Origin: an uncultured Clostridia bacterium
Lineage (GTDB): Bacteria; Bacillota; Peptococcia; Peptococcales; Peptococcaceae
Length of the DNA: 56,979 nt
Assembly (NCBI GenBank): GCA_944391625.1
Contig: CALXUG010000013.1
Coordinates: 1-56,979 of the forward strand
Direction of reading: 5' to 3'
Shown here one piece after another: positions 49,357 to 56,574 of this stretch (position 1 is its first letter; each line of letters begins with the position of its first letter). The notes under the pieces were generated by a model. The model saw nothing but the letters and a program-made list of their open reading frames with translations. It was not told where the DNA came from and did not search any database. A program made the position numbers and the translations under genes.

Positions 49357-49396
49357 TATCTGAGCAATAATTACTTTGGTTTTTATCCAAATGAGA

Positions 49397-49996
49397 ATGG
49401 AGTATATTCAATTAAATATATTAGAATTGCTTGAAATTTACGGAGAGGAACAGTTGCAAGAACGCCTCTCTTCTTTTGTGTGTCCCAAAAATAGAGATGT
49501 TGAGGATTTTATACAACATAAGGCGATAGAGTTTGCTAAACAGCGAGTAGCAATTTCTCATTTAGTTTTCTCCATGACAACGCCTCCTGTTTTAGTGGGG
49601 TATTTTACATTAGCAAATAAGTTTATTTCTATTACAGGTACTGTATTAAGTAAAACATTACAGAGAAAAATATTGAAGTTTTCGCAATATGACAAAGAAT
49701 TAGAACGGTATATTGTTTCTATGCCATTAATTGCTCAATTAGGAAAAAATTTTGCTCCAGAGGCTAAAGAGATGATTACAGGAAAAACACTTTTAAATAT
49801 GGCATGTGATAAAATACAGGAAGCCCAATTTATTATTGGAGGAAAGGCAGCTTATATAGAATGTGCAAATAATGAAAAATTATATGCGTTTTATACAGAT
49901 TCTCAATTTGTTTCGTTTGGACAACGGAAATGTGATAAAGATGAATTGGTAGAAGAATCTATTTTAGTGCAAATGTTAAAATATTTTAAAAATTAA
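49397..49996 (+). CDS. GNAT-like acetyltransferase, AT-rich islet gene
   Basis: About 199 residues. The beginning (ILELLEIYGEEQLQERLSSFVCPKNRDVEDFI) and the segments VGYFTLANKF, LIAQLGKNF and GGKAAYIECANNEKLYAFY match a widespread Bacillota family of GNAT-fold proteins often met in mobile DNA. The substrate is unknown; toxin-like GNAT proteins exist but nothing here proves that role. Codon use is far more AT-rich than in lon or engB. ATG 49391 and 49397 are both possible and neither has a good ribosome site. It lies alone between two identical terminators. Confidence 0.8.
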   Translation: MEYIQLNILELLEIYGEEQLQERLSSFVCPKNRDVEDFIQHKAIEFAKQRVAISHLVFSMTTPPVLVGYFTLANKFISITGTVLSKTLQRKILKFSQYDKELERYIVSMPLIAQLGKNFAPEAKEMITGKTLLNMACDKIQEAQFIIGGKAAYIECANNEKLYAFYTDSQFVSFGQRKCDKDELVEESILVQMLKYFKN

Positions 49997-50002
49997 TTCA
50001 AC

Positions 50003-50046
50003 AGAGCAGTTTGTGATGCGAGAGTGCATTGCGGACTGCTCTTTTT
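50003..50046 (+). terminator. Terminator, second copy of an identical 44-bp pair
   Basis: Identical to 49177-49220. It starts seven bases after the GNAT stop codon. Confidence 0.92.
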
Positions 50047-50149
50047 ATTTTTCTGAAAATTTTGCTGTGTTTCCCTCTTTACTTTGCTGCTTTAGTGTGA
50101 TAAAATACTAAACAGATTAACAACGAAATTGAAGTTGGAGGAGAAACGT

Positions 50150-50971
50150 ATGAAAAAGAAAATTGCAAAAGTATTGGCTCTTGGTTTGGTAGTAGGTATG
50201 GCGTTGACCGGTTGCGGCGGCAGTGATGATGCAGATAAAAATGCAGATCAGGCAGCAACTGATGGCGAAGCTATGGTGTATGCAGTAGAAACCGGTTCTG
50301 CCGGTGAAGCTGCTGCAATAGAAAAAGGTTTACAGTACAACTCTGTAGGTTCCCAGAGTGATGCGCTGATGGAAGTTGCTTCCGGCACTTCTGATGCAGC
50401 CATTATTGACCTGCTGATGGCCGGCGCTATGATTGGTGAAGGCACAAGCTATCCGGATATGATCTATACCGATGCCCTGACCACTGAAGAATATGGTGTT
50501 GGCTGCCGTAAAGGTTCCGACCTGGCTTCTTACATCAATGCAGTATTTGCTGAAAGCTATGCCGATGGTTCCATGCAGGAAATCGCTACCCAGTATGGCG
50601 TGCAGGAATCTCTGGTAGAACAGCAGGCTGCAGAATTTGTAGCCAATGAACCAGACAGCGATGTGGCTTACATTCAGGAAAAAGGTACTTTAATCGTAGG
50701 TATCACAGAATTTGAACCAATGGATTACAAAGATGAAAACGGTCAGTGGATCGGTTTTGATGCTGACATGGCCAAAAAGGTTGCTGAAAAATTAGGCGTA
50801 GAAGTTGAATTTGTTGTTATCGACTGGGATAACAAAATTATGGAACTGGATTCCAAAAACATTGACGTAGTATGGAACGGTATGACTTTGACACCGGAAG
50901 TAACCGAATCTATGGAATGCACCAATGCTTACTGCAACAATGCACAGGTTGTTGTAGTACCAGCTGAATAA
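50150..50971 (+). CDS. Amino-acid ABC binding lipoprotein with permuted lobes
   Basis: A 273-residue lipoprotein: signal peptide, lipobox ALTGC with Cys22, then two halves of an SBP_bac_3 fold in the wrong order. Residues about 43-155 (VYAVETGSAGEAA, GTSDAAIIDLLMAG, YGVGCRKGSDLASYIN) are the part that is normally C-terminal. Residues about 179-272 (GTLIVGITEFEPMDY, WIGFDADMAKKVAEKLG, IDVVWNGMTLTPE, AQVVVVPAE) are normally the mature N-terminus. A linker of about 25 residues joins them. The frame is clean and the gene has a perfect GGAGGAG site and its ABC partners downstream, so it looks functional. Confidence 0.9.
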   Translation: MKKKIAKVLALGLVVGMALTGCGGSDDADKNADQAATDGEAMVYAVETGSAGEAAAIEKGLQYNSVGSQSDALMEVASGTSDAAIIDLLMAGAMIGEGTSYPDMIYTDALTTEEYGVGCRKGSDLASYINAVFAESYADGSMQEIATQYGVQESLVEQQAAEFVANEPDSDVAYIQEKGTLIVGITEFEPMDYKDENGQWIGFDADMAKKVAEKLGVEVEFVVIDWDNKIMELDSKNIDVVWNGMTLTPEVTESMECTNAYCNNAQVVVVPAE

Positions 50972-50973
50972 TA

Positions 50974-51030
50974 GATAGCGCTGCTATCTGAGAAGAAGGG
51001 GCTGTTGCTCTCCATGCGGCAGCTCTTTTC
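50974..51030 (+). terminator. Two hairpins between binding protein and permease
   Basis: GATAGC-GCT-GCTATC at 50974-50988 and a weaker GGGCTGTTGC/GCGGCAGCTC hairpin (about 50998-51024) with a T-rich end. A partial terminator here would give more binding protein than permease. Confidence 0.5.
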
Positions 51031-51092: not shown

Positions 51093-51749
51093 ATGTTTTG
51101 GACTGTAACGCAAGCATTGCTTAGCGGTTTGGCAACTACCTTTCAAATTTTCATATTAACGCTTTTATTTTCTCTGCCTTTGGGTTTAGTCATTGCTTTG
51201 GCATCTATGAGCAAATTTAAGCCGCTGCGTTATCTGATGCAGACCATTGTGTGGATCGTCCGCGGTACGCCGCTGATGCTGCAGTTGATTATTATTTTTT
51301 ATGGCCCCGGTTTATGGTTTGATAATAATATTTGGAGCGGCGGCACTGCAGGCCGTATTACTGCTACAGTTGTGGCCTTTACCATTAACTATGCCTGCTA
51401 TTTCTCTGTTATTTTCCGCGGCGGTATCGAAGGGGTGCCTGTGGGACAGCGGGAAGCCGGCGAAGTGCTGGGTATGACCAAAAGTCAGATTTTCTTTCAG
51501 ATTACCCTGCTGCAGATGGTAAAACGGGTGGTGCCACCGATGTCTAATGAAATTATTACACTGGTGAAAGACACCTCCTTGGCGCGGATTATTTCTGCCT
51601 ATGAATTGACCTTTACCGGCTATTCCTTTGTAAAAGCGGCAGGGATTACCTGGCCGTTGTTCTACACTGGTGTATTCTATCTGATATTTGTAGGCATATT
51701 AACCTTGTTGTTTAACTATATTGAACGCAGACTGGATTATTTCAGATAA
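51093..51749 (+). CDS. Amino-acid ABC transporter permease (HisM family)
   Basis: A 218-residue membrane protein with about five helices. WIVRGTPLMLQLIIIFYG near residue 52 and the coupling segment GQREAGEVLGMTKSQIFFQITLLQ are typical of polar amino-acid permeases; it probably forms a homodimer. GGGAGAAG precedes the ATG. It follows the binding protein and is 13 bases before the ATPase start. Confidence 0.94.
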   Translation: MFWTVTQALLSGLATTFQIFILTLLFSLPLGLVIALASMSKFKPLRYLMQTIVWIVRGTPLMLQLIIIFYGPGLWFDNNIWSGGTAGRITATVVAFTINYACYFSVIFRGGIEGVPVGQREAGEVLGMTKSQIFFQITLLQMVKRVVPPMSNEIITLVKDTSLARIISAYELTFTGYSFVKAAGITWPLFYTGVFYLIFVGILTLLFNYIERRLDYFR

Positions 51750-51762
51750 GGAGCAAGTATCT

Positions 51763-52548
51763 ATGGCGATTTTGGAAGTGAAAAATATTGAAAAACACTT
51801 TGGCAGCACAAAGGTTTTAAAAGATGTCAGCTTTTCGCTGGATGAGGGAAATACTTTGGCCATTATCGGTTCTTCCGGTTCTGGGAAAACAACATTATTG
51901 CGTTGCCTGAACTTTTTGGAGACACCAAATCATGGCAGTATATCGGTAAGAGATACCGTTTTGTTTGATGCAGAGCATCCGGAGCGGGAGCAGGAGAAGG
52001 ATTTGCGCAAGAAACGGCTGCGCTTCGGCATGGTGTTCCAGTCCTTTAATCTGTTTCCCCAGTATACCGCTCTGCAAAATGTGACATTGGCGGAGCAGCT
52101 GCTGGCAAAGGAACGGAAGGATTTCAAACAGAACAAGAAAAAGATTTTTGCAGAAATTGACGAGCACGGCAAAGCATTGCTGGCGCAGATGGGATTGTCA
52201 GAGCGTATGCATCATTATCCCCATCAGCTGTCCGGCGGTCAGCAGCAGCGGGTTGCCATTGCCAGAGCGTTGGCGCTGAGTCCGGATATTTTGTGTTTTG
52301 ATGAACCGACTTCAGCGTTGGATCCGGAGCTGACCGGCGAGGTATTAAAAGTTATCCGCAGTTTAGCGGACAACAAAACAACCATGATTATTGTCACCCA
52401 TGAAATGGCCTTTGCCCGCGATGTAGCCGATCAGATCATCTTTATGGACGGCGGTGTGGTAGTGGAACAAGGGACTGCCAAACAACTCATCGACAATCCG
52501 CAGGAAGAACGGACCAAAAAGTTCCTGGCCCGTTATACCCAGGGATAA
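51763..52548 (+). CDS. Amino-acid ABC transporter ATP-binding protein
   Basis: A 261-residue ATPase: Walker A GSSGSGKT (36-43), Gln93 in VFQSFNLFPQYTAL, LSGGQ (156-160), Walker B ILCFDEP, and His213. The FQSFNLFP pattern marks the GlnQ/HisP group. I start at the ATG at 51763 behind AAGGAGC; the longer frame overlaps the permease. With the two genes before it, it completes one importer. Confidence 0.95.
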   Translation: MAILEVKNIEKHFGSTKVLKDVSFSLDEGNTLAIIGSSGSGKTTLLRCLNFLETPNHGSISVRDTVLFDAEHPEREQEKDLRKKRLRFGMVFQSFNLFPQYTALQNVTLAEQLLAKERKDFKQNKKKIFAEIDEHGKALLAQMGLSERMHHYPHQLSGGQQQRVAIARALALSPDILCFDEPTSALDPELTGEVLKVIRSLADNKTTMIIVTHEMAFARDVADQIIFMDGGVVVEQGTAKQLIDNPQEERTKKFLARYTQG

Positions 52549-54549: not shown

Positions 54550-56574
54550 ATGGGTAAAAAATATACCGACAAAGTATTATTACTGGGTGTTGACGGATTG
54601 GATCCAAAACTGACATCCAAATTCTTGAAAGAAGGCAAACTGCCTAACATTCAAAAATATGTAGAAGCAGGGGCGCAGAAAGAAGATTTAAAATTAATCT
54701 GCACACCGCCAACCATTACACCACCACTGTGGACCACATTGGCAACCGGCGCGCTGCCTGTTACCCACGGCATCACTTGCTTCTGGAGACAGGACCCTGT
54801 AAAACTGGATACAGCAGGCTATAACTTAGACTCTCGTCTGTGTACTGCTGAAGCACTGTGGAATGTAACTGCCGAAGCAGGCATGAAGACACTGGTATGG
54901 CACTGGCCAGGTTCCAGCTGGCCTCCAACCAGCGACAACCCAAATCTGCATGTTATCGACGGTACACAGCCAGCTGCTGTAAACTCCGGCGTTGCCAAAG
55001 TAGAATCTGAAAAAATTACTGTAGCAAAAGATACCATTACAGAAGTAAAATTCAAACCAGCTGCTGTGAATAACACCGGCGCAGGCTGCGTAATTGAAGA
55101 TATTCCTGAAACCGAAGATACTTTCGATGCCAACAGCGTTTTGGGCGGTTCCATGAGCATGACCAACATCATCCTGAAACAGTCTGACGGGGAAGATGGC
55201 CTGGAAGATATTTCTGCTGACCTGTGCAACTCTCCAATCAAAGATGCTACCGGTTGGGCAGATGCTCCGGAAGGCGCCAAAGAATTCTATGTAGTAACAT
55301 CCGATGGTCTGGTACGCCGTCCTTGCCTGATTTTGAAAAACGAAGAAGGAAAATATGACAGAATTGCTTACTACCACAGCAAAAAAGATGCAGAACCAAT
55401 CGTTGTTCTGAAAAAAGATGAATACAAAGTTGGCATCGTGGATGAATTAATCCACAAAGAAGAAAAAGTAATGGCCAGCCGCAACATGATGGTTATGGAT
55501 ATTGAAGAAGACGGCAGCTATGTTCGTCTGTGGATGAGTAAAGCCTTTGATATTGCCCATGATACGCTGTTCCATCCAAAATCTCTGTACAGACAGATTG
55601 TAGATAACATTGGCTACATTCCGCCAAACCCAACTTTCGGTGGGAAAGATCTGGAAATCATCAATCGTATCGTACTGCCAACTTGGGATGAAGTATGCAA
55701 ATGGCAGGCCAAAGCAATCAACTATCTGATTGACGAAAACGGCTACCAGGTTGTATTCAGCCATATTCACAACGTGGATGCCATGGGTCACTTCTTCTGG
55801 TACTACGGCAAAAACCGTCCTATCATGAACAAAATGGAAGAAGAAGGCTACCAGGATGCCATTGAACAGGTATATTTGCAGACAGACCGTTACCTGGGTC
55901 AGTTCCTGCATCGTTTAGATGAAGGATGGACCATCATGATCTTCTCTGACCATGGTTTATTGACACCGGAAGAAGAAGAAAAACCATTGATCGGTGATGC
56001 ATTCGGCTGCAACGTAAAAGTAATGCAGGAGTTGGGCTTCACCATTCTGAAAAAAGATGAAAACGGCAACGACCTGAAAGAAATCGACTGGGAAAAAACA
56101 AAAGCAGTTGCTACCCGCGGCGGTCAGATTTATATCAACCTGAAAGGCAAATATCCAACCGGTATTGTTGACCCAGAAGATAAATATGAATTGGAACGGG
56201 AAATCATTGACGGTCTGTACAACTACAGATTAAACGGCAAACGGGTTATCGCAGTGGCAATGCGTAACAAAGACGCAATGGTACTGGGCACCGGCGGTCC
56301 GGAATGCGGCGATGTATTGTACTGGTTAGAAGAAGGGGTAAACCGTCTGCATGGCGATGCACTGCCAATGGTAGAAGGCTATAAAGATACTTCTGTAAGC
56401 CCAATCTTTATCGCAGCCGGTAAAGGTTTGAAGAAAGGCTACAACTCTCAGCGTATTATCCGTCAGGCAGATATGGCTCCAACTGTAGCCCATATGCTGG
56501 ATGTGAGAATGCCAAAACAGTGTGAAGGCGCAGTTATCTATCAGATTCTGGAAGATGCTGACTACGTTGACTAA
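54550..56574 (+). CDS. Alkaline-phosphatase-superfamily phosphodiesterase
   Basis: A 674-residue protein of the type I phosphodiesterase/nucleotide pyrophosphatase group. Metal-site motifs are LLLGVDGLDP at the start, PPTITPPLWTTLATGALPVTHGI with the likely nucleophile Thr, FSHIHNVDAMGHFFW, and IFSDHGLLTPEEE; MAPTVAHMLDVRMP is the usual end. It has no signal peptide, so it is probably cytoplasmic. A long insert (about 140-290) separates the first metal half from the second. Codons such as AAC, CTG and GGC are more frequent than in neighbours, suggesting high expression. The substrate is unknown. Confidence 0.88.
   Translation: MGKKYTDKVLLLGVDGLDPKLTSKFLKEGKLPNIQKYVEAGAQKEDLKLICTPPTITPPLWTTLATGALPVTHGITCFWRQDPVKLDTAGYNLDSRLCTAEALWNVTAEAGMKTLVWHWPGSSWPPTSDNPNLHVIDGTQPAAVNSGVAKVESEKITVAKDTITEVKFKPAAVNNTGAGCVIEDIPETEDTFDANSVLGGSMSMTNIILKQSDGEDGLEDISADLCNSPIKDATGWADAPEGAKEFYVVTSDGLVRRPCLILKNEEGKYDRIAYYHSKKDAEPIVVLKKDEYKVGIVDELIHKEEKVMASRNMMVMDIEEDGSYVRLWMSKAFDIAHDTLFHPKSLYRQIVDNIGYIPPNPTFGGKDLEIINRIVLPTWDEVCKWQAKAINYLIDENGYQVVFSHIHNVDAMGHFFWYYGKNRPIMNKMEEEGYQDAIEQVYLQTDRYLGQFLHRLDEGWTIMIFSDHGLLTPEEEEKPLIGDAFGCNVKVMQELGFTILKKDENGNDLKEIDWEKTKAVATRGGQIYINLKGKYPTGIVDPEDKYELEREIIDGLYNYRLNGKRVIAVAMRNKDAMVLGTGGPECGDVLYWLEEGVNRLHGDALPMVEGYKDTSVSPIFIAAGKGLKKGYNSQRIIRQADMAPTVAHMLDVRMPKQCEGAVIYQILEDADYVD

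What the first reader, a model, noticed from the sequence alone, without database searches (positions are those of the whole stretch)
50150..50971. Circularly permuted amino-acid binding protein
In all ordinary SBP_bac_3 proteins the order is VGITxFxP..GFDxDMAxxVAxxLG..IDxxxxGMTxTxE..VVV, then GSxGE..DAxxxD..GxxxRKGSDL. Here the second block (residues 43-155) comes first and the first block (179-272) last, behind a normal lipoprotein signal. The frame is intact, the linker (about residues 156-178) is short and polar, and the matching permease and ATPase follow. The hinge would have to be rebuilt with new chain ends, which could change how ligand closure is signalled.
Basis: partly seen in the sequence, partly recalled or inferred. 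Interest (0 to 1): 0.76.

Follow-up and report, generated by a model that had tools for sequence, protein, structure and literature searches.

The report
Naturally circularly permuted amino-acid binding protein
This bacterial nutrient-capture protein is built with its two halves in swapped order compared with its normal relatives; the swap is real, conserved in many gut bacteria, derived from a normal gene that other gut bacteria still carry, and it happened more than once, which makes it a natural experiment on how such proteins work and evolve.

Summary
Window 50150-50971 (+) encodes a 273-aa lipoprotein in which the SBP_bac_3 (PF00497) blocks are in swapped order. It is not an assembly error: at least 80 full-length homologues with the same order (66-82% identity) occur in Lachnospiraceae, Oscillospiraceae and Eubacteriaceae genomes, including isolates, under strong purifying selection. 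AlphaFold2 gives a confident model (core pLDDT >90, pTM 0.78). Its 19 secondary-structure elements match those of a canonical-order orthologue one to one after rotation; only the connector (two short helices) is missing. Such orthologues (61-73% identical after rotation, same permease/ATPase operon) exist in 41 of 299 sampled Lachnospiraceae genomes, permuted ones in 8, both in none. The permuted form is one clade nested inside the canonical one. Junctions fit tandem duplication, fusion and trimming. The cut lies just behind hinge strand 1: both hinge strands remain, but one of two covalent lobe crossings is lost and the lipid tether moves to lobe 2. A second permuted family and a third with another cut site show repeated permutation in these bacteria. 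A permuted sugar-binding protein (TpMglB-2) is the precedent, so this is a new variant of a known kind. A functional consequence is untested.

The parts
50137..50143 (+). ribosome-binding site GGAGGAG
   Evidence: read from sequence
50150..50971 (+). circularly permuted SBP_bac_3 lipoprotein gene, 273 aa plus stop
50150..50215 (+). lipoprotein signal peptide with lipobox LTGC (Cys22)
   Evidence: position conserved in A2
50216..50272 (+). tether, residues 23-41, low complexity, variable in length among homologues (6-55 aa counted from the lipobox Cys to the YAVE motif)
   Evidence: pLDDT < 50
50273..50503 (+). lobe 2 block, residues 42-118 (canonical second block, here first)
50489..50506 (+). 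hinge strand 2, residues 114-119 (only remaining covalent lobe crossing)
   Evidence: predicted strand E114-119; role inferred from homology with canonical cluster F
50507..50623 (+). C-terminal lobe-1 helices, residues 120-158, ending in the canonical C-terminus motif YGVQxxxxEQ
50624..50659 (+). linker, residues 159-170, joins old C-terminus to old mature N-terminus (11-12 aa in 63 of 72 parsed members)
50660..50944 (+). N-terminal lobe-1 block, residues 171-265 (canonical first block, here last)
50945..50962 (+). hinge strand 1, residues 266-271 (QVVVVP); the chain ends two residues later
   Evidence: predicted strand E266-271; tails NAQVVVVPAE*
51004..51023 (+). terminator-like hairpin between SBP and permease genes (weak consensus match)
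51093..51749 (+). PAAT-type ABC permease
   Evidence: PF00528, HEQRo_perm_3TM; partner adjacent in 106 of 112 permuted loci
51763..52548 (+). ABC ATPase of the polar amino-acid type (best NCBIfam TcyN, below cut-off)

Best explanation
The gene encodes a natural circular permutant of a cluster F (SBP_bac_3) amino-acid-type solute-binding protein, the lipid-anchored binding subunit of the ABC importer encoded just downstream. Its ancestor was a canonical-order orthologue. Most likely that gene was tandemly duplicated, the C-terminus of copy 1 was fused in frame to the mature N-terminus of copy 2, and the first lobe-1 block of copy 1 and the lobe-2 part of copy 2 (with the connector after hinge strand 1) were trimmed. 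The product should fold into the usual two-lobed flytrap with both hinge strands present. Only hinge strand 2 still joins the lobes covalently; hinge strand 1 ends at the new C-terminus. The lipid tether enters at lobe 2 instead of lobe 1. Shown here: block order, conservation, ancestry, junctions, predicted fold. Inferred: ligand binding, transport, duplication route. Ligand unknown: the usual carboxylate-binding Arg is Val/Thr, a change that predates the permutation.
For: Swapped PF00497 and PDB-sequence matches. Same order in relatives of the genus, a sister genus and at least 80 public genomes, isolates included. dN/dS 0.02-0.08. AF2 core pLDDT >90, pTM 0.78. The canonical orthologue model has the same 19 elements in rotated order plus two connector helices and aligns end to end with solved SBPs (Z 25.4 over 237 residues; GlnH Z 22.9). 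The permuted model aligns with canonical SBPs closely over lobe 1 only (96 residues, 1.4 A; full-span rows have Z <= 10 at 3-7 A). Canonical-order orthologues 61-73% identical to the window after rotation, up to 78% to other permuted ones. Permuted form one clade (SH-aLRT 97) nested inside canonical; permeases give the same split (98). Junction motifs. Tandem SBP arrays in related genomes.
Against: No experimental structure or binding data. Model coordinates and PAE were not available, so the two-lobed assembly rests on pLDDT/pTM and element order, and no permutation-aware superposition was run. No 1.5-copy intermediate of this particular family was found. Tree support is SH-aLRT from short searches only. 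The lobe crossings were assigned by homology, not measured.
Confidence: 0.93

Rival explanations
1. Assembly or frameshift artefact: two pieces of one canonical gene joined in the wrong order.
Against: Same order and same junctions in at least 80 independently assembled genomes, including isolates such as Roseburia porci and Oscillibacter sp. PC13, with a conserved linker and dN/dS 0.02-0.08.
Confidence: 0.01
2. The two halves do not close on each other within one chain but pair between two chains, giving a domain-swapped dimer (the close relative TmArgBP is reported to swap its C-terminal helix; that report is from memory).
For: Loss of one covalent crossing and a 12-aa linker could allow exchange (inference); TmArgBP is the best sequence match with a solved structure.
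Against: Confident single-chain AF2 model with all elements; linker length tightly conserved at 11-12.
Confidence: 0.06
3. The permutation arose by fission and fusion (two separate half genes re-fused in the other order) rather than by tandem duplication.
For: General alternative model (PMC3320104); no partial-duplication intermediate of this exact family was found.
Against: The linker carries the canonical C-terminus (YGVQxxxxEQ) directly before the canonical mature N-terminal motif (DSDxxYI), as head-to-tail fusion predicts; tandem SBP_bac_3 arrays exist in related genomes (L010/L011 double, L177 triple); no split-gene halves were seen in the loci examined.
Confidence: 0.2
4. The permutation is functionally neutral: binding, closure and signalling to the permease are those of the canonical orthologue, and it became fixed by drift with its operon.
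For: Same partner type in both forms; 61-78% identity to canonical orthologues with nearly all core residues shared; single origin, then spread as an operon.
Against: Permutation recurs in at least one further SBP_bac_3 family with the same cut site and in a third with another cut, which hints at an advantage or at a permissive site; not decisive.
Confidence: 0.6

Closest known systems
TpMglB-2 (Tp0684) of Treponema pallidum, 'Type Ic / Cluster Bc' (PMC4990184)
   Same: Natural circular permutant of an ABC-importer SBP, lipid-tethered, relatives in Gram-positive gut bacteria; the paper shows ligand binding and a conformational change for it.
   Different: Sugar-binding cluster B (type I) fold, cut after the third strand of the N lobe, adds a fourth crossing and an insertion, poor similarity in the permuted part. 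Here cluster F fold, cut right behind hinge strand 1, one covalent crossing fewer, high identity to living canonical orthologues.
Canonical cluster F / SBP_bac_3 proteins (GlnH, HisJ, LAO, TmArgBP) and the canonical-order orthologues L183, L186, L191
   Same: Sequence, predicted elements, partner permease and ATPase.
   Different: Domain order; the 14-15 aa connector after hinge strand 1 is missing here; tether on lobe 1 in the canonical form, on lobe 2 here. Arg to Val is shared with the close canonical orthologues but not with more distant ones.
GlnPQ of Lactococcus with tandem substrate-binding domains fused to the permease (PMC8025302; PDB 6h30)
   Same: Shows that in-frame tandem SBP_bac_3 arrays exist and function, the kind of intermediate that permutation by duplication needs.
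   Different: Canonical order in each domain, not permuted.
Plasmodium PfVFT1 (PDB 5jkq)
   Same: Best VIA-align row for the permuted model (Z 12.2, 142 residues, model 121-266 to chain 29-197), an alignment that spans the permutation junction.
   Different: Eukaryotic protein of different function, 14% identity; whether it is a permutant was not verified (the structure paper is not held).

Membership tests
SBP_bac_3 (PF00497), cluster F solute-binding protein | profile match above the curated cut-off | tested here: met
   100.3 bits vs 26.4, two stretches
SBP_bac_3 (PF00497), cluster F solute-binding protein | canonical order lobe 1N - lobe 2 - lobe 1C | tested here: not met
   order is lobe 2 - lobe 1C - lobe 1N; hence a permuted descendant, not a canonical member
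SBP_bac_3 (PF00497), cluster F solute-binding protein | two-lobed fold with two hinge strands | tested here: inconclusive
   all elements predicted with pLDDT > 90, pTM 0.78 and matched one to one with the canonical orthologue; coordinates and PAE not available
SBP_bac_3 (PF00497), cluster F solute-binding protein | Arg that binds the ligand carboxylate (HisJ/LAO R77 position, motif TxER) | tested here: not met
   residue 251 is Val in 75 and Thr in 11 of 86 permuted sequences; also Val in all 16 close canonical orthologues, Arg in 6 more distant ones
SBP_bac_3 (PF00497), cluster F solute-binding protein | Asp in lobe 2 that binds the ligand amino group | tested here: met
   Asp87 invariant in 86 permuted and 22 canonical sequences; role taken from HisJ/GlnH knowledge
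SBP_bac_3 (PF00497), cluster F solute-binding protein | export signal and cognate PAAT-type permease and ATPase | tested here: met
   lipobox; permease and ATPase
SBP_bac_3 (PF00497), cluster F solute-binding protein | ligand binding with domain closure | not testable with these tools
   needs purified protein
Type Ic / Cluster Bc SBPs (TpMglB-2) | circularly permuted SBP topology | tested here: met
Type Ic / Cluster Bc SBPs (TpMglB-2) | cluster B (type I) sugar-binding ancestry | tested here: not met
   matches cluster F SBP_bac_3; orthologues are cluster F
Type Ic / Cluster Bc SBPs (TpMglB-2) | cut inside the N lobe after its third strand, with a fourth crossing | tested here: not met
   cut lies behind hinge strand 1 and removes a crossing

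The most novel reading that the evidence does not exclude
The permutation is adaptive: cutting the chain behind hinge strand 1 (one covalent crossing instead of two) and moving the membrane tether to lobe 2 changes the open/closed equilibrium or docking geometry, and this is why SBP_bac_3 proteins of Lachnospiraceae and allies were permuted several times independently, at least twice at the same site.
Probability: 0.22. Interest if true: 0.75.

Novelty: new variant of a known kind. Interest (0 to 1): 0.58.

Why it matters
Natural circular permutation of SBPs was known to me only from one sugar-binding group. Here it occurs in the amino-acid class, repeatedly, in common gut bacteria, with canonical and permuted orthologues up to 78% identical serving the same transporter type, and with tandem-array relatives still present. 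That allows a direct test of whether SBPs need two covalent hinge crossings for closure and signalling, and of how circular permutation arises. It also means that order-dependent annotation reads such proteins as two partial domains. The cut behind hinge strand 1 is a naturally tolerated site of interest for biosensor design.

Tried and rejected
T-box or riboswitch clue to the ligand: none found in 17 loci with Rfam. A solved structure of a permuted family member: PDB sequence searches gave only canonical chains in two pieces. The Arg-to-Val change and the conserved Cys residues (119, 257, 262) as consequences of the permutation: rejected, they occur in close canonical orthologues too. The window's tether (DDADKNADQ) as a remnant of the deleted connector (DKADKYQD): not conserved in other members, treated as chance. 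A 1.5-copy intermediate: three candidate long-ORF regions (L222-L224) held canonical SBPs or SBP-permease fusions. Other SBP_bac_3 genes of the genome: two, both canonical. Short tether as a special feature: some canonical orthologues have equally short tethers. Literature: no permuted amino-acid SBP found in the open library; subscription papers were not searchable, and the PfVFT1 structure paper could not be read.

Full report
Observation. The ORF at 50150-50971 (+) is intact, starts with ATG behind GGAGGAG, and encodes a 273-aa lipoprotein. PF00497 matches it at 100.3 bits in two stretches in the wrong order. Against solved canonical proteins, residues 175-270 align with the first about 100 residues and residues 43-141 with residues about 120-218; a 78-member family profile gives 2.7e-22 and 7.4e-10 for the two halves of TmArgBP. 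The permease and ATPase follow directly.

Not an artefact. In related genomes the same order appears in 5 further genomes of the genus (one of them a fragment at a contig end) and in one sister genus. A scan of public genomes returned 80 loci, matched along the whole or nearly the whole permuted query at 66-82% identity, in Lachnospiraceae, Oscillospiraceae and Eubacteriaceae, including isolates (Roseburia porci, Oscillibacter sp. PC13, bacterium 1xD42-87). Close pairs have dN/dS 0.02-0.08.

Structure. AlphaFold2 with 78 permuted sequences gives mean pLDDT 87.5, nearly all of the core above 90, pTM 0.78; only signal and tether are disordered. The model of the canonical-order orthologue L183 (pLDDT 87.6) has the elements H48-55, E57-62, E69-71, H80-91, E95-100, H103-111, E117-123, H126-131, E143-148, [connector H149-154, H158-161], E165-169, H173-180, E184-188, H191-200, E205-209, H210-216, E226-231, E235-241, H247-260, H263-271 (a short strand E139-141 is left out). 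The permuted model has exactly the second ten first (E43-47 to H141-148) and then the first nine (H171-178 to E266-271); only the connector is missing. As a control, the canonical model aligns end to end with solved cluster F proteins (3hv1 Z 25.4, 237 residues; GlnH Z 22.9). The permuted model aligns well only piecewise (lobe 1: 96 residues at 1.4 A; full-span rows have Z of 10 or less at 3-7 A), as expected for a sequential aligner facing a permutation.

Ancestry. Among 299 Lachnospiraceae genomes, 41 hold a canonical-order orthologue (my count of first-block matches at about 1e-50 or better in the listing), 8 the permuted one, none both (only the best 8 candidates per genome were scored). 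After rotation, canonical orthologues are 61-73% identical to the window and up to 78% to another permuted protein. In a tree of rotated sequences the permuted form is one clade (SH-aLRT 97) nested inside canonical sequences. The adjacent permeases show the same split (98), so SBP and permease travelled together. Sequences from the window's own genus fall in several places of the permuted clade, which suggests horizontal transfer.

Junctions. Canonical orthologues end in YGVQAAVIEQ*; permuted ones continue from YGVQxxxxEQ through an 11-12 aa linker into DSDVAYIQ, which matches the canonical mature N-terminus (xDSDxxYI). Canonical proteins read NAQVVVVP-x-DKADKYQDxDSLxDLxFAVEAGSAGE; permuted ones end at NAQVVVVPAE* and begin their domain at VYAVEAGSAGE, so the connector of 14-15 aa is gone. 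This is what tandem duplication, head-to-tail fusion and trimming would leave (model described in PMC3320104).

Not caused by the permutation. The Arg that binds the ligand carboxylate in this family is Val or Thr in all 86 permuted sequences and Val in all 16 close canonical orthologues, Arg in more distant ones; Cys257, Cys262 and, in the sister group, Cys119 are shared with canonical orthologues. The ligand therefore remains unknown; no leader RNA was found.

Recurrence. A second permuted family (L128 and others), cut at the same place, gives junction-spanning matches in about 62 of 299 Lachnospiraceae genomes, in some fused to the permease; 46 sequences were checked one by one. It groups apart from the window family with its own canonical relatives. 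A third arrangement starts at the second hinge strand (L039, L130, L202). In L039 an operon with the third arrangement lies directly upstream of an operon with the window's arrangement. Tandem arrays exist: a double SBP (L010/L011) and three SBPs fused to a permease (L177).

Mechanism. Most likely the protein is the lipid-anchored binding subunit of the adjacent importer and works as a flytrap. Compared with its canonical orthologue, hinge strand 1 is no longer followed by a chain into lobe 2, leaving one covalent crossing, and the tether holds lobe 2 instead of lobe 1. Whether that alters closure or docking is open. Same-partner conservation argues that function is kept; recurrence in other families is a hint, not proof, of an advantage.

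Known versus new. TpMglB-2 (PMC4990184) is a permuted SBP of another structural cluster with a different cut; I found no report of permuted amino-acid SBPs in the open-access library. I rate it a new variant of a known kind.

Noticed in passing
L128:1303-2100 (+) and L139-L168, L178-L181, L207, L208, L211-L215, L218-L221: Second, separate family of circularly permuted SBP_bac_3 proteins with the same cut site, keeping the carboxylate Arg; junction-spanning matches in about 62 of 299 Lachnospiraceae genomes, about 20 of them in ORFs of 500 aa or more; those read are SBP-permease fusions.
   Followed up: partly
L130:1387-2208, L202:693-1598 (-), L039:1448-2311: Third permutation with a different cut: protein starts at the second hinge strand and ends inside lobe 2.
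   Followed up: partly
L039:1448-5374: Two neighbouring ABC operons whose SBPs are permuted in two different ways.
   Followed up: no
L177:913-3831 (-): 973-aa protein with three near-identical canonical SBP_bac_3 domains fused to a permease.
   Followed up: partly
L010:1093-2682 (-), L011:1099-2682 (-): Fused tandem double SBP_bac_3 proteins (about 530 aa) in genomes of the window's class.
   Followed up: partly
L224:1359-6063: A canonical SBP-permease fusion and a permuted SBP-permease fusion lie in the same 6-kb locus.
   Followed up: no
L127:1486-3051: Roseburia porci copy of the second permuted family with an in-frame TAA in the SBP part; the rest is fused to the permease.
   Followed up: no
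window residues 119, 257, 262 (50504-50506, 50918-50920, 50933-50935): Three Cys, nearly invariant in the permuted family, lie in or next to the hinge strands; 257 and mostly 262 predate the permutation. Disulfide or other role unknown.
   Followed up: partly
L077, L079, L080, L085, L098 (permuted); L176, L187 (canonical): Members with an ordinary signal peptide and no lipobox Cys.
   Followed up: no
PDB 5jkq (PfVFT1) against model residues 121-266: Best structural row for the permuted model spans the permutation junction, suggesting that PfVFT1 may also be permuted; not verified.
   Followed up: no
50003-50042 and 51004-51023: Terminator-like hairpins upstream of the SBP gene and between SBP and permease.
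   Followed up: no
49376-49996 and 54550-56574: Neighbouring ORF without a Pfam match, and a type I phosphodiesterase-family protein (PF01663).
   Followed up: no
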